Shown: in pieces, positions 14,401 to 60,783 of the stretch
How the letters are laid out: each line of letters starts with the position of its first letter
How positions within the stretch are numbered: position 1 is the stretch's first letter
Source: a virus
Length of the DNA stretch: 64,000 bases
Virus record (IMG/VR): IMGVR_UViG_3300035670_000101
Span: 1-64,000 of that record
Direction: 5' to 3' (one strand)
Notes under the pieces: model-generated
The model's input: only the letters and a program-made list of their open reading frames with translations
Database searches by the model: none
Told to the model about the DNA's origin: nothing
Made by a program: the position numbers and the translations under genes

Positions 14401-14428
14401 TTACATTCACACTTAACAGTGGTAAATT
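14400..14428 (+). promoter_or_regulatory. Promoter of initiator gene with overlapping iteron
   Basis: TTTACA, 17 bp, TAAATT. The -10 is covered by a copy of the GTGGTAAATTT motif (14419-14429) that recurs inside the gene, so the initiator may repress its own promoter. Confidence 0.6.
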
Positions 14429-14459
14429 TAACACACTTTAATTTATTCGGAGATTTACA

Positions 14460-15383
14460 ATGAGTGTCAATGCTACACGTTTTGCGTGGGAATGCGATTT
14501 ATCAAAAACAACAAAGAGAAGTGCTAAACGCCTTGTTCTTTTAGCTTTAGCAGATCGTACAAATAAAGAGAACACTTGCTTCCCATCAATTGCAAGAGTT
14601 GTTAAGGATACTGGTATGGATAGAAAGACTGTTATGAATACAATCAATGACCTTATTACTCTAGGTCTTATATCAGATACAGGTGAACGTAAAGGAGGAA
14701 CTAATCAAGTTCGAGTGTTAAAGATTAATGTTGTTAAACAAGGAAGTTATCCACAGGGAGATCAAGAATCATCAAATAAACAGGGTGGAATTTACAAAGA
14801 AACAGTGGTAAATTTACCAATAAACGGTGTGGAATTTCCTAGTAACGGTGGTAAATTTGGGACACAGAATCTAAAACAATCTTTAATTAAATCTAAAAAT
14901 AATCTTAACAGTGAAAAAGATTTTAATCTAGATGAAGAAATTGTTTTAAAACCAAAACAACTGGATTTTATTGATAGTAGTGAAATCATTGTTGAAAGTG
15001 TACGTGAGAGCTTAAAAACAGCACATAACAGCTTGAATACAGAGGTAGGTGGTACGTATGTACCTGAACAACAAAACAACGCTATAGATAGCATCTACGA
15101 AGACGTAGATACCTTACACAGCGATATGCAGAAACCTAAGAAACAACAAGACAAAAGTTCTTGGATTCCAAAACACTTGTACGCTGAACACATGAAACAG
15201 AAGCGTCTTGATGAACAACTTAATAAAGAACCCTTCATCCCTAAGAGCATGATTAAAGGGTGGGAAGATGGTATGAAAGGAAACCCTAATGCGACAAAAG
15301 GTATTCCTGATCACTTGTTAAACAATCCAACTCTTGCTAAGATATTGAAGATGAAAGGCAAGAGCACAAACAACAGTGTTTGA
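14460..15383 (+). CDS. O-like replication initiator with winged HTH
   Basis: 307 aa. Residues about 20-95 form an HTH_36-like winged helix (S-I-A-R-V-V, D-R-K-T-V, then L-I-T-L-G-L-I-S), as in lambda O-type and plasmid initiators. The middle is low-complexity and polar, encoded by the iteron array, and the C-terminal part is charged and likely binds the helicase or its loader. A DnaA box and four iterons lie inside the gene at 14747-14858, followed by an AT-rich stretch, as in lambda ori. ATG follows TTCGGAGATTTACA. Confidence 0.75.
   Translation: MSVNATRFAWECDLSKTTKRSAKRLVLLALADRTNKENTCFPSIARVVKDTGMDRKTVMNTINDLITLGLISDTGERKGGTNQVRVLKINVVKQGSYPQGDQESSNKQGGIYKETVVNLPINGVEFPSNGGKFGTQNLKQSLIKSKNNLNSEKDFNLDEEIVLKPKQLDFIDSSEIIVESVRESLKTAHNSLNTEVGGTYVPEQQNNAIDSIYEDVDTLHSDMQKPKKQQDKSSWIPKHLYAEHMKQKRLDEQLNKEPFIPKSMIKGWEDGMKGNPNATKGIPDHLLNNPTLAKILKMKGKSTNNSV
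14747..14940. other. Candidate replication origin inside initiator gene
   Basis: A perfect DnaA box TTATCCACA (14747-14755) precedes four related motifs: GTGGAATTT (14785), GTGGTAAATTT (14805), GTGGAATTT (14829) and GTGGTAAATTT (14848). Their spacing is 19-24 bp, about two helical turns. A very AT-rich tract follows to about 14940. A fifth copy lies in the promoter at 14419. The layout matches lambda-type origins; function is inference. Confidence 0.7.
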
Positions 15384-16654: not shown

Positions 16655-17953
16655 ATGATTGAATTAAAAACAATACCGAAAGAGGAGCGTAACAGTATCA
16701 TCTGTAACTTGGAATACTTCTCTTTCTTAATATGGAGAAAAGACACTTGTTTGAAATCTGCACACAAAACCCTTATTGATATTGTAGGTAAGAAATTTGA
16801 ACAAGAACTTTGGGTTGTCCTTACACACATTGGTCAGGCAATTAGATATGGTACAGACGGATATAGAATTTCATTTAATGATCATCACTATTCTTCGGCA
16901 AACAAACGATTTAATGTTAAACTATCATCAAGAAGGATGAAAGAGTTACTGTGTATTTTACATTGTAAAGATTTTATAAAGTTCTACTTAGGGTTTTATC
17001 ACAAGAATGTCGATAGCGAACTTAGTGCTGTAATTATCAATGAGAGAATATTAAACCTTCTCAACATTCCCTTGTTAAAATCTCAAGGTGTTAAGCGAGA
17101 AGAACCTAAAGATGATATTGAGGTTGTTAATGATGAGCTAACAGTTGTTACTAAATCTTATAATGTGTCTACAGGGCAGATGAAAAAACGTAAATCAATT
17201 GTATTTAAAGAGACCAGAGGCATGACAGGTATTACCGAATTAAAGAGAAACTTAAAGGCTTATAACAGCCTTATTGAGAAACACAAAACAACCATTGATT
17301 TAGGTGATGGAGATAAAGAGTGTAACAATATTATCTACAAACGTAGATTCCAGAACAATCTTCACACTTGTGGTAGATATTACACTAAGTCTGTATTTCA
17401 GACGTTACCAAGTGAGTGTAGAAAGTCTATTAAGATTGATGGGGAGGATACGGTAGAGTTAGATATTAAATCAGCTCATTGTACGTTCCTTAGTACGTTA
17501 GATGGAATCACTCTACCAGATGATTTCGATTCTTACACAATTCCTAAGCTGATTGAATTAGGGGTGAGTAGAGATTTCACTAAAGGGATGTTGTTTCCCT
17601 TACTCTTCTCTAAGAATAAAGCTAGTGCTATAAAAGGTATTAGATTAAAACTTAAAGAGTATGGATTATCACATCTTAGTGCTGAGTATATGATTGAATG
17701 TTTTGTTGAGCATAATCCGTTTATTGAGGAATACTTATTCTCTGAACAGTTGTATGGTGAGTTACAATATATTGATGCTTCTATTGCTACATTAGTTATT
17801 GATCACTTTACAGAGAAAGGTATTGTTGTATTGTGCTACCACGATAGCTTTGTTATTCAGAAGATGTATAAAGACCAATTGTATTCTAAGATAGAAGATA
17901 GTTACTTAGAAGTATTAGGTGATACAACTAACTTAGTCATAAGAGAAGTTTAA
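16655..17953 (+). CDS. TV-Pol-like family A / T7-RNAP-related polymerase
   Basis: 432 aa. A G-R-Y-Y-x-x-S-V-F-Q-T-L-P segment (about 246-258) leads to motif A, V-E-L-D-I-K-S-A-H, with D270. Motif B-like R306-x-x-x-K310 follows, and motif C is Y-H-D-S-F-V-I (H396, D397, S398). The HDSF form of motif C is shared with T7-type RNA polymerases and the TV-Pol family (transposon-virus polymerases) rather than with phage Pol I (HDE). The N-terminal 200 residues show no exonuclease motifs. It sits after the O-like origin gene, so a role in priming or initiation is plausible. Start ATG is 15 nt after GAGGAGGG, a rather long spacing. Confidence 0.7.
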   Translation: MIELKTIPKEERNSIICNLEYFSFLIWRKDTCLKSAHKTLIDIVGKKFEQELWVVLTHIGQAIRYGTDGYRISFNDHHYSSANKRFNVKLSSRRMKELLCILHCKDFIKFYLGFYHKNVDSELSAVIINERILNLLNIPLLKSQGVKREEPKDDIEVVNDELTVVTKSYNVSTGQMKKRKSIVFKETRGMTGITELKRNLKAYNSLIEKHKTTIDLGDGDKECNNIIYKRRFQNNLHTCGRYYTKSVFQTLPSECRKSIKIDGEDTVELDIKSAHCTFLSTLDGITLPDDFDSYTIPKLIELGVSRDFTKGMLFPLLFSKNKASAIKGIRLKLKEYGLSHLSAEYMIECFVEHNPFIEEYLFSEQLYGELQYIDASIATLVIDHFTEKGIVVLCYHDSFVIQKMYKDQLYSKIEDSYLEVLGDTTNLVIREV

Positions 17954-18195: not shown

Positions 18196-18226
18196 TAATT
18201 TAATATTTAATTAAATGGGTGTTTTG

Positions 18227-18376
18227 ATGTTATATGATAAATTTGATAACAGTAAAAAACTTTGCTACAGGTGTTTGAATTTCGATACACCTAAAATAAA
18301 GAAAGGTAAGGATAAGTGGTACAGACATTACTTTGTTTGTTGTAAGAAATGTGGTTGCAAGGTTTTCTTTAGTTGA
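18227..18376 (+). CDS. Mini zinc-ribbon protein
   Basis: 49 aa. Two cysteine groups, C-Y-R-C near residues 13-16 and C-C-K-K-C-G-C near the C-terminus, could bind one zinc. It is the first gene after the 18167 promoter and is basic, so nucleic-acid or protein binding is possible. Only a weak GGGTG ribosome site is seen before ATG 18227. Confidence 0.6.
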   Translation: MLYDKFDNSKKLCYRCLNFDTPKIKKGKDKWYRHYFVCCKKCGCKVFFS

Positions 18377-20916: not shown

Positions 20917-22668
20917 TTGAGTTACGAATTTAAGGTTAAGAAAGGAGGTTCAGAGTTGAATATCAGCACACCAAAAGAGACAGTTGACGAAGTTCTTGGT
21001 TATGGATTTCATGGCAATCGTGAGCGAGGGATTACTAAAACAACTTGTGAAAAGTTTGGTGTTCGTGCTTCCGTAAGTGAAAAAGATGGAAAAACAGTAA
21101 CAGCATACTACTTCCCCTCACATAATGCTAAAGGTGAAGTTACGGGATATATGAAGCAAGATGTGACCTTACCGAAGGAAGGGAAAGGTCATTGGTCTGC
21201 TGTAGGAAATGTTAAGATTGGTAATAAGCTTTTTGGTCAGAATATTGCAGAATCTATTGGGCGAAAGCACACCAACTTTACTGTAACTGAAGGACAGTGG
21301 GATTGTTTATCTGTTTATCAAGCACAACTAGCATCTGTTAAAGATACTAAATATGAGGGTCAAGAACCTTTTGTTGTTTCTATTCCACTAGGGACAAAGA
21401 ATGCGACAGAAGCACTTCTGCACAACAAAGATTTTGTACTCTCCTTTGATAGTATGACTGTGTTCTTTGATGATGATGAAGCAACTCCTATGGAGAAGCA
21501 GAAAGGTGTTCTAAAGGGTAAAGAGGCTAAAGATGAGGTTGCTTCGGCATTTATTGGCGATATTAAGTTGTTCTCAATCCAACCCTCACACGGATATAAG
21601 GATGCTTCGGATTACCTTCAAGATGCTAAAGGTGTTTTTGAGAACAGACAAAAGGCAGAAGATGCCTTAGCAAAGCTTGTTCAATTTGATCGAAAACCTC
21701 TAGTGACTGAGAAGATTGCACAAGCAGGGTCAATCTCTTTAGATGAACTTTGTGAGCCTATTCAGACTGGCATTGAAATTACAAGCTTCCCAAAACTTTC
21801 TGAAATGCTTTATGGGTGGCGTACAGGTGAGCTTACTGTTGTGACCGCGAGGAGCGGTGCAGGAAAGACTACTGGCATGACTAAGATTGCTGAGGATGCT
21901 ATCAATCAAGGTGAGCGAATGGGTCTGATCTACCTTGAGGAGAAAAATAAGCAAACCTTGCAGCGATTTGTCGCTTCACAACTTAAAGTAAGCTATAAGA
22001 AGTTTAAGCGAGACCCATTATCTGTTTCTTCTAAGGAAGACATTGAGAATGTTTATCAGCGATTTGTGGATAACAAACAAATTGTAATGCTTGACCATTT
22101 TGGTTCTTTACCAATTAAAGAGCTTATGGCTAAGATTAAGCACATGTATTTTGTGGAAGGTTGTCGATACATCTTGCTTGATCACTTGTCTATGGTAATC
22201 TCTGGAAGTGAAATTACAGACGAGCGTAAAGAGATTGATATTGTGATGACTGAAATTGCTGCTTTTTGTGCTGCTAATGATTGTGCTGTCATGCTTGTTG
22301 TCCACTTAAACCGACAAGGCAGTTCACATGTTCAACCTCCAAAGGGTAAGGAAAACGAACCTTTTTGGGTGCAAGTTACAAAGGAGACTATGCGTGGTTC
22401 GGGGAGTTTAGAGCAGATTGCATGGAATGTTTTGGGTTTAGAGCAAGAGATTATGCCAGATCGTAGTCGAGGGCGTGTTCGTTGGGTTGTATTGAAGAAC
22501 CGAGAGGGAGGTGACTTGGGTGTTGCAGATACGTTTAAGCTTAATGATACAGATTGGACTGTTATTCATTACGATGACGATGAGAACGTTAATGCAGTCA
22601 ACCCAGATGTTAAACCTGTTGTGTTTGCTAAACAATCTGAAGATATTGACGATGAGATTCCATTTTAA
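20917..22668 (+). CDS. TOPRIM-primase-like/DnaB-type helicase (T7 gp4B-like)
   Basis: 583 aa. The TOPRIM domain (about 120-215) has V-T-E-G-Q-W-D-C-L near 125 and F-F-D-D-D-E near 184-189. The RecA-type helicase domain has Walker A A-R-S-G-A-G-K-T-T near 311-319, Walker B I-L-L-D-H near 416-421, and L-V-V-H-L-N-R near 460. The N-terminal Cys4 zinc domain needed by T7 gp4A for primer site recognition is absent. The acidic tail ends D-D-E-I-P-F, like T7 partners that bind polymerase. TTG start with GGAGAAAGG upstream. It should unwind the fork. Confidence 0.9.
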   Translation: MSYEFKVKKGGSELNISTPKETVDEVLGYGFHGNRERGITKTTCEKFGVRASVSEKDGKTVTAYYFPSHNAKGEVTGYMKQDVTLPKEGKGHWSAVGNVKIGNKLFGQNIAESIGRKHTNFTVTEGQWDCLSVYQAQLASVKDTKYEGQEPFVVSIPLGTKNATEALLHNKDFVLSFDSMTVFFDDDEATPMEKQKGVLKGKEAKDEVASAFIGDIKLFSIQPSHGYKDASDYLQDAKGVFENRQKAEDALAKLVQFDRKPLVTEKIAQAGSISLDELCEPIQTGIEITSFPKLSEMLYGWRTGELTVVTARSGAGKTTGMTKIAEDAINQGERMGLIYLEEKNKQTLQRFVASQLKVSYKKFKRDPLSVSSKEDIENVYQRFVDNKQIVMLDHFGSLPIKELMAKIKHMYFVEGCRYILLDHLSMVISGSEITDERKEIDIVMTEIAAFCAANDCAVMLVVHLNRQGSSHVQPPKGKENEPFWVQVTKETMRGSGSLEQIAWNVLGLEQEIMPDRSRGRVRWVVLKNREGGDLGVADTFKLNDTDWTVIHYDDDENVNAVNPDVKPVVFAKQSEDIDDEIPF

Positions 22669-22731: not shown

Positions 22732-24756
22732 ATGACCATTAACATTTTTGCAGCAGATATTGAAACATCTGGATTAACGCATCACCTTATCGAGCAAGGA
22801 AGTCAAGCAAAGTTGCACAACCTGTGTGCACATGACATAATCAGACAACAAACGCACCTGTTTGAAGGAAGTCAGCGAGACGACATTGAGAAGTTTTTAA
22901 GTCGTGAAATTATCATGGTGATGCACAATGGTATCTGTTACGATAAAAACGCCTTAAAAATTCTTGGGTACAATGTTGATAAAGTGCATTTCGTAGATAC
23001 ATTGGCATTGTCTTGGTATTTAGATTTAAATCGTGACAAACACGGATTGGAGAGTTACGGAGATGAGTTTGGTGTGCCTAAGCCTGAAATTAAAGATTGG
23101 AAGGACTTAACGCAAGAGGACTACAACCACCGTGTTCGTGAAGATGTGAAGATTCAATATCAAACGTATAAAAAGCTCAAAAGAATGTTTGAAGAGCTAT
23201 ACGGTGAAATGTCTGACTATGAGTTTTGTACTCACAAAGTTGTTAAATACTTAAACTTTAAGATGGAGCAGCTTTCAGAACAACAAGAGACACGTATTCA
23301 GGTAGATGTGAAGAAAGCTAAAGCTCTTGTTGATGAGTTAGCTGTTAAGCTTGAGGAAAAGGTATCTCAACTTGCAACCGTTATGCCTAAAGTGCCTGTC
23401 TACTCAAAACATACTAAACCGGCAAAGCCTTTTAAGAAGGATGGAAGTTTATCTGCAACAGGTTTGAAGTGGAAAGAGCTTTGTGAAAGGTCTGGAGTTG
23501 ACTTTGATTTTGAAGGTGAGATTAAAACTATCAAGGGATATAACGACCCAAACCCACAATCTCCTCAGCAAATCAAAGATTGGCTTTTTTCATTTGGTTG
23601 GTCTCCGAAAACATTCAAATATAGCAGAGAGGAAGATGGAACAGAGAAGCGTATACCACAAATATATGTTCAAGGTACAGGAGGTCAAATCTGTCCAAGC
23701 ATTGAAGAGTTGGCTGAGAAAATACCTGATGTAGGTGAGTTGGTTGGGATGGGTGTCATTAAACATCGAAAGGGTGCTGTTCAAGGGTTTTTGGACAGTT
23801 TAGTTTTTGATAATTATGTTGAAGCTGGTGCAAACGGTTTTACGAACACTCTGCGATTGAAACATAGGAAGCCTTGCGTCAACCTTCCATCTAGTCGTGT
23901 ATTGTATGGGGCTGAGGTTCGATCTTGTCTAATGGCTAGAAATGGTATGCTTCTGGGAGGTGCTGACCTAAGCTCTTTAGAAAATCGAATTAAGTTTAAC
24001 TTGCAGCTACCATATGATCGTGAGTATGTATTCTCGCAAATGTCAGAAGACTTTGATCCACACTTAGAGATTGCAAAAGAAGCTTTGCTACTGACAACAG
24101 CTCAAGTGAATTTTTATAAAATTGTTAAAGAAGGGTTTCCTGTCGAGAGATATACTTTAGATGAAGAGTTGAAAGATCTTCTAGAATACCCAGAAGATTT
24201 GAAAGCTGAACTTGTAAAAAAGATTTCTGAGATACGAGGTAAGGGAAAGTCTGCAAATTACGCGCTTCAGTATTCTTGCGGTATTAAGACATTGGCTCGT
24301 ACAGCAGGTGTTACAGAGAAGGTTGCAAAGCAAATGTATAAAGCTTACAAGAAGATGAATTGGTCTATTGATAAGATTGCCGAAGCTCAAGTTAGAAAGA
24401 AAGTGAGTCATGGAGAATATCAACTGAACCCTTTTAATGGTTTTTGGTATCACCTAAAGACAACGAAGGATTCCTTCTCAACTCTTGTGCAGGGCACTGG
24501 AAGTTACATCTTGGATTTGTGGTTAAGTTACCAATTTAAGCTCAGAAATTCAGACGCATATCAGTTTGAAGACAGTAGTGTAAAGCTTTTAGCGACATTT
24601 CACGATGAGCAAGTTATTGAATTTAAAGAGGAATTTAAGAGTGATGTAGAAAAGTTAATCTCAGATTCTTTGAAAAAAGTAAACAGTCGACTGAATCAAG
24701 AGATTGAGTTTGGTTGTGACATCCAGTTCGGAAAAACATACGCAGATATTCACTAA
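22732..24756 (+). CDS. Family A DNA polymerase (T7-like)
   Basis: 674 aa. The 3'-5' exonuclease domain has D9-I-E-T, H-N-G-x-x-Y-D near 63-69, and Y-x-x-x-x-x-E-D. Polymerase motifs: A, G-A-D-L-S-S-L-E-N-R near 410-419; B, G-K-G-K-S-A-N-Y-A-L-Q-Y near 502-513; C, F-H-D-E near 622. It is the replicative polymerase. ATG 22732 follows TAGGAGGGTTT; upstream in-frame TTG 22681 lies in the terminator. Confidence 0.95.
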   Translation: MTINIFAADIETSGLTHHLIEQGSQAKLHNLCAHDIIRQQTHLFEGSQRDDIEKFLSREIIMVMHNGICYDKNALKILGYNVDKVHFVDTLALSWYLDLNRDKHGLESYGDEFGVPKPEIKDWKDLTQEDYNHRVREDVKIQYQTYKKLKRMFEELYGEMSDYEFCTHKVVKYLNFKMEQLSEQQETRIQVDVKKAKALVDELAVKLEEKVSQLATVMPKVPVYSKHTKPAKPFKKDGSLSATGLKWKELCERSGVDFDFEGEIKTIKGYNDPNPQSPQQIKDWLFSFGWSPKTFKYSREEDGTEKRIPQIYVQGTGGQICPSIEELAEKIPDVGELVGMGVIKHRKGAVQGFLDSLVFDNYVEAGANGFTNTLRLKHRKPCVNLPSSRVLYGAEVRSCLMARNGMLLGGADLSSLENRIKFNLQLPYDREYVFSQMSEDFDPHLEIAKEALLLTTAQVNFYKIVKEGFPVERYTLDEELKDLLEYPEDLKAELVKKISEIRGKGKSANYALQYSCGIKTLARTAGVTEKVAKQMYKAYKKMNWSIDKIAEAQVRKKVSHGEYQLNPFNGFWYHLKTTKDSFSTLVQGTGSYILDLWLSYQFKLRNSDAYQFEDSSVKLLATFHDEQVIEFKEEFKSDVEKLISDSLKKVNSRLNQEIEFGCDIQFGKTYADIH

Positions 24757-33950: not shown

Positions 33951-34760
33951 ATGAGTGTTAAGTACGGTGCAGTTTACGCTGCTTTTGATAAAGAAAATAG
34001 AACTTTTTTGAACACGATGACAGGTTTCACGGATTGTAATTATTACGATCGTTGGAGAAATATGATGACTAGGGTTTATGGAAATTATGAAAAAACTAGA
34101 AGTACTTACGAAAATGTTGAGTGTTCTCCTAGTTTTTTGAACTTCTTTAATTTCAAATCTTGGATTGATAAAGAACCTTTTTCAAATTATACGGTTTCTG
34201 GAAACCCTTATCAATTGGACAAAGATTTACTTGGTTTCGGAAGGATGTATTCGGAAGAAACCTGTGCGTTCCTCCCTGCATGGTTGAATTCGACAATGCC
34301 ACGTGCTAATCAGAAATCGGATAAAGAAACCATGTATGTTAGTGTTAAAAGGGAGTCAGAACTAAAGACAACGTACACTTGTTTCCTAAAGACTGAGAGT
34401 GGTGGTAGTAAGTTTATTGGAGGTTTTACCGATCCAATTGTAGCAAACAAGTTTGCGATTTTCGTCAAAGCTAAGATTATGCAATACATTGGAGAAAACA
34501 TCGAAGGGTTGGTAAAACCAGAAGTTATTTATATGCTCTTAAACTTTGATTCTTGGCTACTGGAATCTGGGTTTAATTACGACCAAAACTTCAAACATCA
34601 CAGACTCGATGAGGTGTTGTTGTGGTACAAGAAACACTATGATATTGTAATGGAAGATGCGAAAAGGTCTACAAAAATTGTTGAACATATCGACAGTTGT
34701 GAATTTTGTAAATCTAGTGATGCTAAAATGCAACGTATAAGTGAAATTTCAGGGGGTTAA
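33951..34760 (+). CDS. Putative mobile AP2-like family protein (copy 1, divergent)
   Basis: 269 aa. Shares with the proteins at 46285, 49082 and 55261 the core W-x-x-M-x-x-R-x-Y, then L-D-K-D-L-L and Y-S-E-E-T-C-A-F-L-P (about residues 87-108). The AP2-like C-terminal part is eroded (F-I-G-G-F-T-D-P-x-x-A-N-K-F). It has an extra 70-residue C-terminus with a C-x-x-C pair. No complete HNH core is seen. Likely a homing-type gene inserted between MazG-like and unknown genes. Confidence 0.6.
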   Translation: MSVKYGAVYAAFDKENRTFLNTMTGFTDCNYYDRWRNMMTRVYGNYEKTRSTYENVECSPSFLNFFNFKSWIDKEPFSNYTVSGNPYQLDKDLLGFGRMYSEETCAFLPAWLNSTMPRANQKSDKETMYVSVKRESELKTTYTCFLKTESGGSKFIGGFTDPIVANKFAIFVKAKIMQYIGENIEGLVKPEVIYMLLNFDSWLLESGFNYDQNFKHHRLDEVLLWYKKHYDIVMEDAKRSTKIVEHIDSCEFCKSSDAKMQRISEISGG

Positions 34761-46284: not shown

Positions 46285-46872
46285 ATGAAGGGTGGCAATA
46301 GATTGGTTTATGGTTTTGGTATTACAGACATTCCTTCAGGAAAAAATGGAAATCACTCTCGGGAGTATATGCTTTGGAAGGGTATGATAAGAAGATGTTA
46401 CGCTTCCAATAGGTCTGTATTCTCAGATAACTATTTGGAATGTACGGTTTCAGATGATTTTAAGCTGTTCTCTAAATTCTCAAGCTGGTATAACAACCAG
46501 AAGGGATCATCCATAGATGGGTGGTGTGTCGACAAAGACCTTTTGGTTAAGGGGAATAAAATTTACTCCCCAGAAACTTGCGTTTTTCTTCCTAGGGAAA
46601 TAAATACCGCCATCACTACTAGCAACAATAAAAGAGGTGATATGCCAATAGGTGTGTTTTTTAATAAAAAACTTGGGAAATACTCAGCCACCGTCAGCTC
46701 AATGGGAAAGAGCAACTATTTAGGCTTGTTTAATACACCAGATCAAGCGTTTTTTGCCTACAAGTCCAAAAAAGAGGAGTTAATGGCTGGATTAGCTAAA
46801 AAGTACATCGATCAATTGTCTGAAAAAGCATACAACGCATTGATAGGATTCAACGTCGACATAAGCGACTAA
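46285..46872 (+). CDS. Putative mobile AP2-like family protein (copy 2)
   Basis: 195 aa. Residues about 28-108 carry W-x-G-M-I-R-R-C-Y, D-D-F-K-L-F, V-D-K-D-L-L-V-K-G-N-K and Y-S-P-E-T-C-V-F-L-P. The C-terminus reads P-I-G-V-F-F-N-K-K-L-G-K-Y-S-A ... L-G-L-F-N-T-x-x-x-A-F-x-A-Y, the AP2/ERF-like DNA-binding pattern. Probably a homing-type DNA-binding or nuclease protein. Last + strand gene before a convergent junction. TTGGAGGAG before ATG. Confidence 0.65.
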   Translation: MKGGNRLVYGFGITDIPSGKNGNHSREYMLWKGMIRRCYASNRSVFSDNYLECTVSDDFKLFSKFSSWYNNQKGSSIDGWCVDKDLLVKGNKIYSPETCVFLPREINTAITTSNNKRGDMPIGVFFNKKLGKYSATVSSMGKSNYLGLFNTPDQAFFAYKSKKEELMAGLAKKYIDQLSEKAYNALIGFNVDISD

Positions 46873-49081: not shown

Positions 49082-49837
49082 TTAATCATCAAAACCCACC
49101 TCATATTTCATCAACGCTTCGTAAACCCTGTCATCAATTTCACCTTTCCATTTTTCAGCCACAGATTTAATGTAAGCTTCTTTATGTGTCTTATAGGCTA
49201 TAAACGCATCCTCTTTTGTGGTGAATGCACCGAGATTTTTTAAACTTGTGCGTCTGTGGAGGTTCGCGGTAAATTTCCCCACCTTTTTGTGATACGAAAC
49301 TCCTATGGGGTAACTTCCTCTTGTCGAACCAGCCTTTATAAATAAACTATTCACCTCTCGTGGAACAAAACAACAAGTTTCTTCTGAATAAATTTTATTT
49401 CCTTTAACCAGAATATCTTTATCCAAATGCCAACCTTCTTGATCAAAACCTTTCTGATTTAAACACCAAGACTTAAATTTCTTGTAAATTTTAAAATCAT
49501 CAGATGTTATGCATTGTTCGTAAGTAGGGAATTTGTAAAGCTCTTTTTTGTTATAACAACGTCTTAACATGCCAACCCATATTCCGTAAGCTTTGTCGTG
49601 CCTTCCATTTAAAGTTACCCTCTCTTCTCCAACAATACCTACACCATGAACACTTGGAATAGACCAGTCTTTTACACTACCTGCTACAATTTGACTCATA
49701 CTAGCTTTTGTTTTAAAATTAGTTTCTACAAATCTCACGTATACATTACGTGCATTTACATAATCAACTATCTCTAAAATTCCGCTACAATTTGTTTCGT
49801 ATTTTTGACCATTTCGCTCTTTTGCCTTATTTTTCAA
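49082..49837 (-). CDS. Putative mobile AP2-like family protein (copy 3)
   Basis: 251 aa from TTG 49837 (AGGAGAG upstream); the frame reaches GTG 49861. It has an extra N-terminal SH3-like part (about 1-75), then the family core W-V-G-M-L-R-R-C-Y, L-D-K-D-I-L-V-K-G-N-K, Y-S-E-E-T-C-C-F-V-P and the AP2-like tail P-I-G-V-S-Y-H-K-K-V-G-K-F-T-A ... L-G-A-F-T-T. It is the most complete copy. Unlike the others it is on the - strand. Confidence 0.65.
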   Translation of the reverse strand: MKNKAKERNGQKYETNCSGILEIVDYVNARNVYVRFVETNFKTKASMSQIVAGSVKDWSIPSVHGVGIVGEERVTLNGRHDKAYGIWVGMLRRCYNKKELYKFPTYEQCITSDDFKIYKKFKSWCLNQKGFDQEGWHLDKDILVKGNKIYSEETCCFVPREVNSLFIKAGSTRGSYPIGVSYHKKVGKFTANLHRRTSLKNLGAFTTKEDAFIAYKTHKEAYIKSVAEKWKGEIDDRVYEALMKYEVGFDD

Positions 49838-49867
49838 TTTAACTCTCCTATAAATACTCACACATAA

Positions 49868-55064: not shown

Positions 55065-55250
55065 GTGATAACAGATGTTGTATTAACTATAGCTGTAGTA
55101 GTATTTGTTTGGTGCTTAAGTTTTATTAGTGTTATGTTTCTCCTACTATCAGATGCAGATTATAAAACTAAGAATAGTTATAGTACTATGGTGCTAGGTG
55201 TTATAGTGTTGGTGTTGTTTCTCTACTGTGGTTATATGTTGTTTGTTTAA
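55065..55250 (+). CDS. Two-TM membrane protein
   Basis: 61 aa, GTG start after AAGGATC. Hydrophobic helices about 4-28 and 43-60 with a polar loop. First gene after the 55004 promoter. Unrecognised. Confidence 0.65.
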   Translation: MITDVVLTIAVVVFVWCLSFISVMFLLLSDADYKTKNSYSTMVLGVIVLVLFLYCGYMLFV

Positions 55251-55260
55251 GGAGTTTAAA

Positions 55261-55857
55261 ATGGGTGGTAAGTGGAATCGTTGGGTAACCCCAACTCGTG
55301 ATGTTGTAGATGGTAAGAATGTTGTTCGTAAAGGGTATACTCAATGGGCTGGTATGTTCAATAGGGCTAAAGGTCAGAAGTATTATGAAGAAGTAGGTAT
55401 TAGTGAGATGTTTAAATCTTATGATTTATGGCATGACTGGGCTGTAGATCAGAAAGGTTTCTTAAATAAGGAAACTAATGGTAAGATATGGTCTATTGAT
55501 AAAGATATTATTGGTGATAGTACAATATACTCAGAAGATGTTTGTGTGTTTGTTCCAGCAATTATTAATTGTCTTTTTATTAAGAGTAAGAATAAATCTA
55601 AAGTTGGTAGACTTGGTGTTAGAAAGGTTGAAAGAGTATCCGTTCCTGATAAGTATGAAGCGAGGTTGGCAGCGTATTGTACTCACATTGGAACATTTGA
55701 CACAGTAGATGAGGCATATAAAGCTTACTTGTCTGCTAGGTTGATGTACTCCAAAGAGTTATTTAATCTATATGGTGACACAGTAGATGATAGGGTATGG
55801 GATTCTTTGTTTAAGTCGTGTGAATATTCTGATATTCCAGATATTCTCAATATTTAG
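55261..55857 (+). CDS. Putative mobile AP2-like family protein (copy 4)
   Basis: 198 aa from ATG 55261 (AAGGAG upstream). The family core is recognisable but diverged: Y-T-Q-W-A-G-M-F-N-R, S-I-D-K-D-I-I and Y-S-E-D-V-C-V-F-V-P. The AP2-like part R-L-G-V-R-K ... Y-E-A-R-L-A-A ... I-G-T-F-D-T-V-D-E-A-Y-K-A-Y is kept. The Cys in the R-C-Y motif is lost. Confidence 0.6.
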   Translation: MGGKWNRWVTPTRDVVDGKNVVRKGYTQWAGMFNRAKGQKYYEEVGISEMFKSYDLWHDWAVDQKGFLNKETNGKIWSIDKDIIGDSTIYSEDVCVFVPAIINCLFIKSKNKSKVGRLGVRKVERVSVPDKYEARLAAYCTHIGTFDTVDEAYKAYLSARLMYSKELFNLYGDTVDDRVWDSLFKSCEYSDIPDILNI

Positions 55858-58932: not shown

Positions 58933-58970
58933 ATCTACATAGACAGCAAACAAGCTAAAAGGAATACAAC

Positions 58971-59246
58971 ATGATCTTATTTAATCAAGCTATTAAACAC
59001 AACGTAAACGCTGAAGAACGTAAACTTCTTAAATCTATCCTTAAAAAACGCCGTAGCCAATTCTGTGATGATGAAGTATTAAACATCTCTTTTAAATATG
59101 AGTCACCTAATAGATGGTTTGAAGATAAAGGGATGAACTATGTTGAGTGGCAAGTCGTTTCAGTATTTCATATCGAAATGGGTATATGGAAAAAAGAAGA
59201 AATAGAAGAATGGCATTATAATTGGTACTATGGTTATAACAATTAA
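58971..59246 (+). CDS. Hypothetical protein
   Basis: 91 aa. Basic first half (K-K-R-R-S), then Trp/Tyr-rich acidic end (W-H-Y-N-W-Y-Y-G-Y). Stands alone between its own promoter and a strong terminator. AAAAGGAATACAAC before ATG. Confidence 0.75.
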   Translation: MILFNQAIKHNVNAEERKLLKSILKKRRSQFCDDEVLNISFKYESPNRWFEDKGMNYVEWQVVSVFHIEMGIWKKEEIEEWHYNWYYGYNN

Positions 59247-59261
59247 TAAACAGCAAGAATC

Positions 59262-59288
59262 ATGCCAGCATTTAAGCTGGCTTTTTTG
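59262..59288 (+). terminator. Intrinsic terminator
   Basis: GCCAGC-ATTTAA-GCTGGC with T6; ends the + strand block. Confidence 0.9.
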
Positions 59289-59742
59289 TACCTGTAATTT
59301 ACTAATCATTATAACTAATATCATTATTAATTAAACTTATAATAAACTTACTAAACTTTCTTTGTTATTATTTATTATTATCTATTGTTTTTAACTTCAG
59401 TTTGTGTTAAGTGACTTTCAAATATCACCCTTATGGGGTAGCTATCAATTCAACTTTATAGCATCACGTTAAACGCTGTTTTAAGCTCATTCTAGCTACT
59501 TTATGATATAACGGTACATAGGTATATATACGTGCTTTAAAATGCCGCTACGGGGCTTATATGAAGATATACGTGGATATTCTAGAATAGGGAAAGGCTT
59601 TACTATTGAGACCAGTGCGCCATGTTTAATACTAAAATAGATATATGACACTTTTCATAAACCCCTTACCCACTCCTAAACACACTCCAGATATTTTACC
59701 TCTTAGAAAACATCCTTGTTCCCTAAAAACGCACTCTAAAAA
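59289..59742. other. Gene-free convergent spacer
   Basis: About 450 nt with no credible ORF, lying between convergent blocks. I see AT-rich sequence, a short GCC/GGC hairpin near 59552 and, at its right end, a word (TCTAAAAATTATTTTC) repeated at 60193. Nothing else is recognised. Confidence 0.5.
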
Positions 59743-60156
59743 TTATTTTCTAAAATTTCTTACTTGTACCAAATCCCCATCAATCCAATCATAACTTTCT
59801 TCCATGTAATCACTGCCTAATGATATAAAGTGCAGATGTCTGCGATACTCAACATCAAGACAAGAAAAGGGCATTACAACTTCCACCTTATTGTTTTCAA
59901 CTAACTCTTGGATAGTTTTAGATGACATACCCATCACACTAAAATACTTTACGCCAGATATCTTCTCAAACTCACAAACTAGGTTAGACCACCAACCACC
60001 TTCTTTTTTAGTGACCTTAACCATACACCCCACATAAATAGACTCACCATTACAATCCAAAACAGAGGTATCTGTTCCGATAACCCCGTAAGAACTGTAA
60101 CCCCTATACTCCAATGTTGGCTCTCCTTCAATAACCCTTGCTAAATGCAATTTCAT
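59743..60156 (-). CDS. Hypothetical protein (KOW/SH3-like pattern)
   Basis: 137 aa. D-C-N-G-E-S-I-Y-V-G-C-M-V-K-V-T-K and later D-G-D-L-V-Q-V suggest small beta-barrel modules, as in the neighbours at 60547 and 61009. GGAGGTTAT before ATG. Function unknown. Confidence 0.7.
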   Translation of the reverse strand: MKLHLARVIEGEPTLEYRGYSSYGVIGTDTSVLDCNGESIYVGCMVKVTKKEGGWWSNLVCEFEKISGVKYFSVMGMSSKTIQELVENNKVEVVMPFSCLDVEYRRHLHFISLGSDYMEESYDWIDGDLVQVRNFRK

Positions 60157-60196
60157 ATAACCTCCACTTAGTTAGATATAACCACTATCAAAATCT

Positions 60197-60442
60197 CTAA
60201 AAATTATTTTCCAAACTTTTTAATAACCCTACAGTGTACTTTACATCGACTATCATGTCATCGCTCAAGTGTGTATAAAAAGGGGAATTTTCGCCACGTT
60301 CCCTATTACTCACTCCTAAGATAATATGACCACAATCTGAATACATAAATCCATCGTAGTAGTCAACACCATAACGTTCCTTTTGATTGAGAAGTCTATC
60401 ACTACCAATGCACCACAAGGTTCTATTTTTAATCCTCTTCAT
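60197..60442 (-). CDS. Hypothetical protein
   Basis: 81 aa from ATG 60442 (GGAGAG upstream); GTG 60445 is possible. Tyr/Asp-rich, unrecognised. Confidence 0.65.
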   Translation of the reverse strand: MKRIKNRTLWCIGSDRLLNQKERYGVDYYDGFMYSDCGHIILGVSNRERGENSPFYTHLSDDMIVDVKYTVGLLKSLENNF

Positions 60443-60468
60443 CACTTCTCTCCAAGATATTCTACTTT

Positions 60469-60504
60469 TAAGAAAACCCTCCGCATTCCTAAAAACACGA
60501 GGGT
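60469..60504 (-). terminator. Probable terminator (- strand)
   Basis: ACCCTC / GAGGGT stem with a long A/T loop and TTTTCTT tail between 60547 and 60442. Confidence 0.55.
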
Positions 60505-60546
60505 AAAAATTTTCCGAAACAAATTTTATAAAATTGATAAAAATAT

Positions 60547-60783
60547 TTATCTGTTTGATGAAAGGAGTCTATTCTTCATTTCGGAAATCTCTGTGAATGT
60601 TGCTTTCCTGATAGTGTCCTCGAACACAAATCTTAGACTGCCCTTACGATCTTTTAAATCTAACAGAACAATGCAATCACGATTCCAATTCCACCCTCTC
60701 ACCTCATAAACACTGCCGTAAAGGTCTGGCAGTGCCTCACAAGATTTAAAACAAACCTTATCACCGATTTGGTAATTGCTCAT
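60547..60783 (-). CDS. Hypothetical SH3-like protein
   Basis: 78 aa from ATG 60783; ATGGAG lies upstream, and the longer frame has no site. Y-Q-I-G-D-K-V-C-F, then G-S-V-Y-E-V-R-G-W is a typical small-barrel pattern of phage accessory proteins. It overlaps the upstream gene by 23 nt. Confidence 0.65.
   Translation of the reverse strand: MSNYQIGDKVCFKSCEALPDLYGSVYEVRGWNWNRDCIVLLDLKDRKGSLRFVFEDTIRKATFTEISEMKNRLLSSNR

What the first reader, a model, noticed from the sequence alone, without database searches (positions are those of the whole stretch)
16655..17953. TV-Pol-like second polymerase next to the origin
The protein has a single-subunit polymerase palm with V-E-L-D-I-K-S-A-H (motif A), R-x-x-x-K (motif B) and Y-H-D-S-F (motif C). 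The HDS form is that of T7-type RNA polymerases and the TV-Pol family described from transposons and viruses, not that of the replicative Pol A at 22732 (HDE). A phage with two palm polymerases, one beside an O-type origin, suggests a special initiation or priming mode.
Basis: partly seen in the sequence, partly recalled or inferred. Interest (0 to 1): 0.75.

Follow-up and report, generated by a model that had tools for sequence, protein, structure and literature searches.

The report
Phage origin-side winged-helix PolA-type polymerase
This phage gene really encodes a second, small DNA-polymerase-like enzyme next to a likely replication start site; the family was described in 2024 as divPolA2, but its front end now looks like a DNA-binding domain and its relatives turn up alone in tiny mobile elements, which suggests that it helps start DNA replication.

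Summary
Confirmed: 16655-17953 (+) encodes a 432-aa family-A palm polymerase. R241, R256, D270, R306, K310 and D397 are invariant in 31 of 31 relatives. An AlphaFold model (pLDDT 88) matches PolA-family DNA polymerases. The phage also has a normal PolA (22732). The family is not new: it is PHROG 4756, named divPolA2 by the 2024 paper PMC11348598, which suggested repair or RNA synthesis and found no known fold at its N-terminus.

New here: (1) the N-terminal domain is predicted to be a winged helix. (2) The gene lies 1.8 kb from a lambda-type origin (four iterons inside the O-like gene). In ICP1_2006_E the relative is ORF100, 58,951-60,618, and published data place the theta origin "near 60 kb". 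(3) Relatives occur beside integrases in small elements, and as the only plausible replication gene on a 3.5-kb, 503x-coverage contig with 4.7 x 40-bp repeats. (4) The phage's gp4-like helicase lacks the primase zinc domain.

Best reading: a site-binding polymerase that starts or primes replication (about 0.5); whether it makes RNA or DNA is open. TV-Pol membership could not be tested. Family-wide origin linkage is not established: the skew-based origin finder failed on ICP1. Verdict: new member of a known family, with a testable function.

The parts
16655..17953 (+). divPolA2-family polymerase gene, 432 aa (P0001)
   Evidence: ORF, PHROG 4756 E 4e-79; AF2 model pLDDT 88.4
16790..17038 (+). 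predicted winged-helix domain, residues 46-128 (a1-b1-a2-a3-b2-b3; wing residue G113 invariant in the phage proteins)
   Evidence: secondary structure of two models; Foldseek hits dominated by winged-helix proteins, best probability 0.90, E 0.04
17312..17950 (+). palm/fingers polymerase domain, residues 220-432
   Evidence: Foldseek PDB family-A polymerases, E 2e-5 to 1e-3
17453..17479 (+). motif A VELDIKSAH, catalytic D270, H275 at the steric-gate position
17570..17584 (+). motif B R306-x3-K310 (fingers O-helix)
   Evidence: invariant
17837..17851 (+). motif C YHDSF, catalytic D397
   Evidence: D397 invariant
14460..15383 (+). O-like replication initiator, 307 aa (P0003)
   Evidence: PHROG 6643 E 6e-32, HTH_36 E 3e-13
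14779..14858 (+). four iterons (AACRGNGKKRAATTT) spaced 21-22 bp inside the O-like gene, followed by AT-rich DNA: candidate origin; a fifth copy lies at 14415-14429
   Evidence: 5 matches, all in this region, 0.04 expected by chance; the motif was derived from these copies
20917..22668 (+). gp4-like TOPRIM-DnaB helicase without the N-terminal zinc domain (P0004)
   Evidence: PHROG 239 E 7e-124; starts at profile position 101 and has no CxxC before the TOPRIM motif
22732..24756 (+). regular PolA with 3'-5' exonuclease region (P0002)
   Evidence: Pfam DNA_pol_A E 6e-15, PHROG 17 E 8e-96

Best explanation
The protein is an active, exonuclease-free family-A palm polymerase of the divPolA2 family, with a winged-helix DNA-binding domain in front of the palm (fold predicted and catalytic residues invariant: shown by computation). 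Inferred: the winged helix binds a site at or near the element's own origin, and the palm then makes the first short strand there (a DNA or RNA primer), which the regular PolA and the gp4-like helicase extend. It would thus work like an initiator-primase rather than as the replicative or a general repair polymerase. In this phage the O-like protein and its iterons would open the origin and divPolA2 would supply the primer, which the gp4-like helicase probably cannot, because it lacks the primase zinc domain.
For: Palm fold and invariant catalytic residues. Winged helix in front of it. Gene 1.8 kb from an iteron-bearing O gene. ICP1_2006_E relative at 58,951-60,618, where published read coverage peaks at 'near the 60 kb position' as expected for a theta origin (PMC7145576); [quoted passage not shown] Relatives beside tyrosine integrases, twice beside tRNA genes, i.e. 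in the slot where known satellites carry a primase; the polymerase is the only plausible replication gene seen there. A 3,486-bp contig, coverage 503x, carries one such gene with 4.7 copies of a 40-bp repeat upstream. Window gp4 without zinc domain. Precedent: the family-A polymerase CcPol becomes a DNA primase with its partner MP (PMC7581432).
Against: No activity has been measured. 13 of 24 divPolA2 phages keep a gp4 with zinc domain, so divPolA2 is not simply a replacement primase. Neighbourhood varies and the O-like gene is not near divPolA2 elsewhere. A replication-fork fit to GC3 skew put the ICP1 origin at 17 kb, away from the mapped one, and did not place most other phages' origins at divPolA2, so origin linkage rests on two phages; even in the window the skew signal is only suggestive (circular-shift control 0.137). 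Several phages carry two or three copies. No conserved small partner gene upstream, unlike CcPol-MP. The winged-helix hits have weak E-values (0.04-0.3).
Confidence: 0.5

Rival explanations
1. A small single-subunit RNA polymerase: the winged helix recognises promoters and the T7-like palm transcribes a set of phage genes (or an origin transcript).
For: Motif C is HDS as in T7 RNA polymerase; most relatives have Met at the O-helix position of T7 M635; the 2024 paper reports Dali matches to mitochondrial and N4 RNA polymerases and proposes this; phage RNA polymerases appear low in the Foldseek list of viral models.
Against: All 50 PDB matches listed are family-A DNA polymerases; His, not Gly, at the steric-gate position and Asn/Phe/Tyr in place of Y639; a transcriptase alone does not explain a minimal element in which it is the only replication-type gene.
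Confidence: 0.2
2. An accessory DNA polymerase for repair, gap filling or lesion bypass, as the 2024 authors also suggested.
For: A regular replicative polymerase is present; no exonuclease; variable gene neighbourhood and variable copy number.
Against: DNA-binding-type N-terminal domain, position at the ICP1 origin and presence in minimal mobile elements are not expected of a repair enzyme.
Confidence: 0.2
3. The polymerase domain is vestigial and the protein is mainly a DNA-binding regulator.
For: High divergence (22-41% identity to the window protein in A3) and motif departures in single members such as FDE in phage 1.063.O.
Against: Both catalytic aspartates and the template and fingers Arg/Lys residues are invariant in 31/31.
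Confidence: 0.06

Closest known systems
divPolA2 (Yutin et al. 2024, PMC11348598; PHROG 4756)
   Same: Same family: barbavirus Barba18A and AUR84708, the protein modelled in that paper, align with it and all hit PHROG 4756; palm with motifs A-C, no exonuclease, second polymerase beside a regular one.
   Different: The paper reports the N-terminal domain as without detectable similarity; here it is predicted to be a winged helix. The paper's survey covered Caudoviricetes; here an element-borne clade is found too.
TV-Pol (Iyer et al. 2008, PMC2579912)
   Same: Small exonuclease-free family-A core, RxxxK, hairpin Arg, two Asp, found in viruses and mobile elements; proposed primase-polymerase.
   Different: TV-Pols are linked to D5-like helicases or carry a helical N-terminal domain; here a winged helix and a gp4/DnaB-type helicase elsewhere in the genome.
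CcPol-MP primase of SCCmec (PMC7581432, PMC10061031)
   Same: Family-A palm used for primer synthesis on a mobile element.
   Different: Needs a separate OB-fold partner from the neighbouring gene; divPolA2 has no conserved upstream partner and carries its own DNA-binding-type domain.
T7 RNA polymerase
   Same: HDS motif C and a related palm; T7 uses it to prime its origin (own knowledge).
   Different: No T7-type N-terminal domain; His at the Gly542 position.
Lambda-type origin (oriLambda in gene O)
   Same: Iterons inside the O-like gene followed by AT-rich DNA.
   Different: No lambda P-like partner was looked for; the phage has its own gp4-type helicase and two palm polymerases.

Membership tests
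divPolA2 | Sequence homology to barbavirus divPolA2 and AUR84708 | tested here: met
   All 19 members of A1, including Barba18A and AUR84708, hit PHROG 4756; the full model matches a Barba31A protein, E 3e-20
divPolA2 | Active family-A palm with motifs A, B and C | tested here: met
   Invariant D270, R306, K310, D397; fold
divPolA2 | No 3'-5' exonuclease domain; separate N-terminal globular domain | tested here: met
   Model: N-terminal winged helix, no exonuclease
divPolA2 | Encoded beside a regular DNA polymerase | tested here: met
   PolA at 22732
divPolA2 | No thumb domain homologous to other polymerases | tested here: inconclusive
   Helix 193-208 could be part of a thumb; no coordinates were compared
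TV-Pol | Hairpin Arg, two catalytic Asp, RxxxK in the fingers | tested here: met
   R241, D270, D397, R306-K310; these are shared by all family-A relatives
TV-Pol | Direct sequence relationship to known TV-Pols | tested here: inconclusive
   No TV-Pol sequence at hand; profile A1 found nothing in Ma-LMM01, without a positive control
TV-Pol | D5-like helicase fused or adjacent, or helical N-terminal domain with recombinase | tested here: inconclusive
   Window: N-terminal winged helix instead; the replicative helicase found is of gp4/DnaB type. No genome-wide D5 search was made. Element-borne relatives do sit beside integrases
PolA-SSB primase (CcPol-MP type) | Conserved partner gene next to the polymerase | tested here: not met
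   Upstream neighbours in 20 phages share no evident common protein (by eye); downstream genes were not compared systematically
PolA-SSB primase (CcPol-MP type) | Primer-independent synthesis | not testable with these tools
   needs enzyme assay
T7-type RNA polymerase | HDS motif C | tested here: met
   Ser after the invariant Asp in 16/19 of A1 and 11/11 of A3
T7-type RNA polymerase | Small residue at the Gly542 position and Tyr at Y639 | tested here: not met
   His (17/19 and 10/11); Asn/Tyr/Phe with Tyr in the minority

The most novel reading that the evidence does not exclude
divPolA2 is a self-contained initiator-primase unrelated to DnaG and archaeo-eukaryotic primases: one polypeptide that reads an origin with a winged helix and starts the first strand with a family-A palm. 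It is used by ICP1-like phages at their theta origin and is the sole replication protein of tiny integrative elements and plasmids.
Probability: 0.33. Interest if true: 0.82.

Novelty: new member of a known kind. Interest (0 to 1): 0.52.

Why it matters
The 2024 description left the role of divPolA2 open between repair and transcription. The winged-helix prediction, the position of ICP1 ORF100 at the published theta-origin peak and the minimal elements turn this into a direct test: does ORF100 start ICP1 replication? ICP1 is a well-studied phage whose complete replisome has not been characterised, and its satellite PLE uses ICP1 replication proteins, so an initiating polymerase would matter for that parasitism. 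It would also add a kind of primase to the very short list outside the DnaG and AEP families.

Tried and rejected
Pfam, NCBIfam and PDB sequence searches gave no relative; the weak zinc-ribbon hit (0.0014) is below its cut-off and was found in one of 19 members only. Hypothesis 'divPolA2 replaces the missing gp4 zinc domain in every phage': rejected, 13 of 24 keep it. Hypothesis 'a small upstream partner is conserved as in CcPol-MP': not seen. A nearby 53-aa zinc-ribbon ORF (18215-18376) as a detached primase zinc domain: relatives in two phages are not linked to divPolA2. 'Always next to an O-like gene': no. Fork-direction fit of GC3 skew as a general origin finder: fails on ICP1, so it was dropped for the family; in the window the fit (about 15 kb) beats free permutation but not circular shifts (13.7% reach it). 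Distance to cumulative GC-skew minima is non-random (mean rank 0.25 of ORFs, P <= 5e-5) but such minima mark divergent gene blocks and the phages are related, so it is not counted as origin evidence. PICMI satellites as carriers: their primase is DUF3987/DUF5906, another family. hhalign of A1 against the single PolA sequence and of A4 against the O-like protein was uninformative.

Full report
Observation. Pfam, NCBIfam and PDB sequence searches recognise nothing, but PHROG 4756, 'unknown function', covers it end to end with E 4e-79. tblastn finds it in 235 phage records, mostly phages of Vibrio, Rheinheimera, Aeromonas and Pseudoalteromonas, nearly all annotated as hypothetical. In an alignment of 19 divergent members the invariant residues are G113, R241, R256, D270, Y294, R306, K310 and D397: the metal aspartates of motifs A and C, the RxxxK of the fingers and the hairpin Arg that family-A polymerases use on the template. 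The six catalytic-site residues R241, R256, D270, R306, K310 and D397 hold in 31 of 31 proteins when element-borne relatives are added. An AlphaFold model made from the window protein and ten IMG/VR relatives has pLDDT 88.4 and pTM 0.85, and its PDB matches are family-A DNA polymerases (apicoplast Pol, Bst, Taq, T7 DNAP; best E 1.9e-5, probability 1.0).

What family it is. The paper on DNA polymerase swapping (PMC11348598) had already named this family divPolA2: an extra, exonuclease-free PolA in barbaviruses and other phages, sometimes in two or three copies, with an N-terminal domain without detectable similarity, and with repair or RNA synthesis as proposed roles. The protein modelled there (AUR84708) and the Barba18A protein align with P0001 and hit the same PHROG. 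So this is a new member of a published family. The window phage (a 93,394-base virus record) has one copy besides a regular PolA.

The N-terminal domain. Both the full model and a model of residues 1-150 (pLDDT 86.9) show helix 46-64, strand 69-72, helices 76-86 and 92-104 and strands 108-112 and 124-128, the order of a winged helix. Foldseek against the PDB returns mostly winged-helix DNA-binding proteins (PadR, SarA, MarR-like and ArsR-like regulators, Cdc6/Orc1 initiators), best probability 0.90, E 0.04. Each single E-value is weak; the agreement of the hits and the topology carry the claim. The wing glycine G113 is invariant in the phage proteins.

Origin context in the window. The O-like initiator gene (14460-15383, PHROG 6643) contains four 15-base iterons AACRGNGKKRAATTT at 14779, 14801, 14823 and 14844 with a fifth copy at 14415; there is no other match in the window and 0.04 are expected (with the caution that the motif was read from these copies). 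AT-rich DNA follows. This is the anatomy of a lambda-type origin, and divPolA2 begins 1.8 kb downstream. GC3 skew of + strand genes is about 0 before 14.4 kb and beyond 46 kb (nearly all of those lie beyond 75 kb) but +0.17 between 14.4 and 46 kb, and - strand genes have +0.28, as expected for one origin near 15 kb and a terminus near 46 kb; a fit gives 15 kb but circular shifts of the track reach the same gain in 13.7% of cases, so this is support, not proof. The gp4-like TOPRIM-helicase of the phage starts where T7 gp4 has already passed its zinc domain; from established knowledge of T7 gp4B such a protein unwinds DNA but makes no template-directed primers.

Origin context in ICP1. In ICP1_2006_E the divPolA2 relative is ORF100, 58,951-60,618. 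In the same isolate read coverage at 8 min peaks 'near the 60 kb position' with the profile of bidirectional theta replication (PMC7145576). Coverage was binned at 1 kb and the text gives no finer position. I found no paper on that ORF.

Beyond phages. A scan of bacterial genomes with the profile found relatives on a 3,486-bp contig of Chitinilyticum piscinae named with coverage 503x (L194) and in a Pseudoalteromonas contig (L193). L194 carries the 425-aa polymerase, 4.7 copies of a 40-bp repeat with 96% matches upstream and only small ORFs otherwise; its ends do not overlap, so circularity is unproven. Searches of 369 and 395 further genomes found it in a few. In three the gene lies close to a tyrosine integrase, twice with tRNA genes next to the integrase: small elements in which no other replication gene was seen. 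On a tree the six most divergent element proteins form their own group (97/98 support), while the Pseudoalteromonas one falls among the phages; some long branches make details unsure. By the displacement argument used for TV-Pols (PMC2579912), a gene that fills the primase slot of satellites is likely to do the primase's work.

Limits. Of 24 divPolA2 phages whose gp4 was found, 13 keep the zinc domain, so divPolA2 is not simply the missing primase. The O-like gene is not near divPolA2 in other phages. The fork fit fails on ICP1, the one phage with a mapped origin, and puts most other phages' origins elsewhere, so family-wide origin linkage is open. divPolA2 copies do lie downstream of divergent gene-block boundaries more than other ORFs (mean rank 0.25), which fits early genes as well.

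Nucleotide choice. At the steric-gate position of motif A the family has His (17/19 and 10/11), in the O-helix mostly Met and Asn, neither the DNA polymerase nor the T7 RNA polymerase pattern. Whether the product is DNA or RNA cannot be read from the sequence.

Verdict. The best-supported mechanism is a winged-helix family-A polymerase that starts or primes replication at its own element's origin (0.5); transcription (0.2) and repair (0.2) remain.

Noticed in passing
L194:1-3486 (Chitinilyticum piscinae contig, coverage 503x): Candidate small multicopy replicon: divPolA2-like gene 1096-2373, 4.7 x 40-bp tandem repeats 679-866, no other replication gene.
   Followed up: partly
L204:895-4921, L207:5637-8614, L205:4492-8271: Small integrative elements with a tyrosine integrase (beside tRNA genes in L204 and L207) and a divPolA2-like polymerase as the only replication gene seen.
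   Followed up: partly
L068 (phage 2L372X) versus L075 (phage phiA047): Phages with nearly identical divPolA2 proteins carry different gp4 primase-helicases, one with and one without the zinc domain, suggesting swapping of that gene.
   Followed up: no
window 18215-18376 (+): 53-aa zinc-ribbon ORF just after the polymerase; similar small ribbons in phages M1 and 2L372X, not next to divPolA2 there.
   Followed up: partly
window 33951-34760, 46285-46872, 49082-49861, 55228-55857: Four ORFs share a pattern around 'W..M..R.Y ... W.(V/L)DKD(I/L)...G...YS.ETC.F.P' and look like paralogues of a DNA-binding, possibly homing-associated family; seen by eye only.
   Followed up: no
L195:11782-12717 (Thioclava plasmid pTElox9): A divPolA2-like ORF of 311 aa that appears to lack most of the N-terminal domain lies directly beside an IS21 element; possibly truncated.
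   Followed up: no
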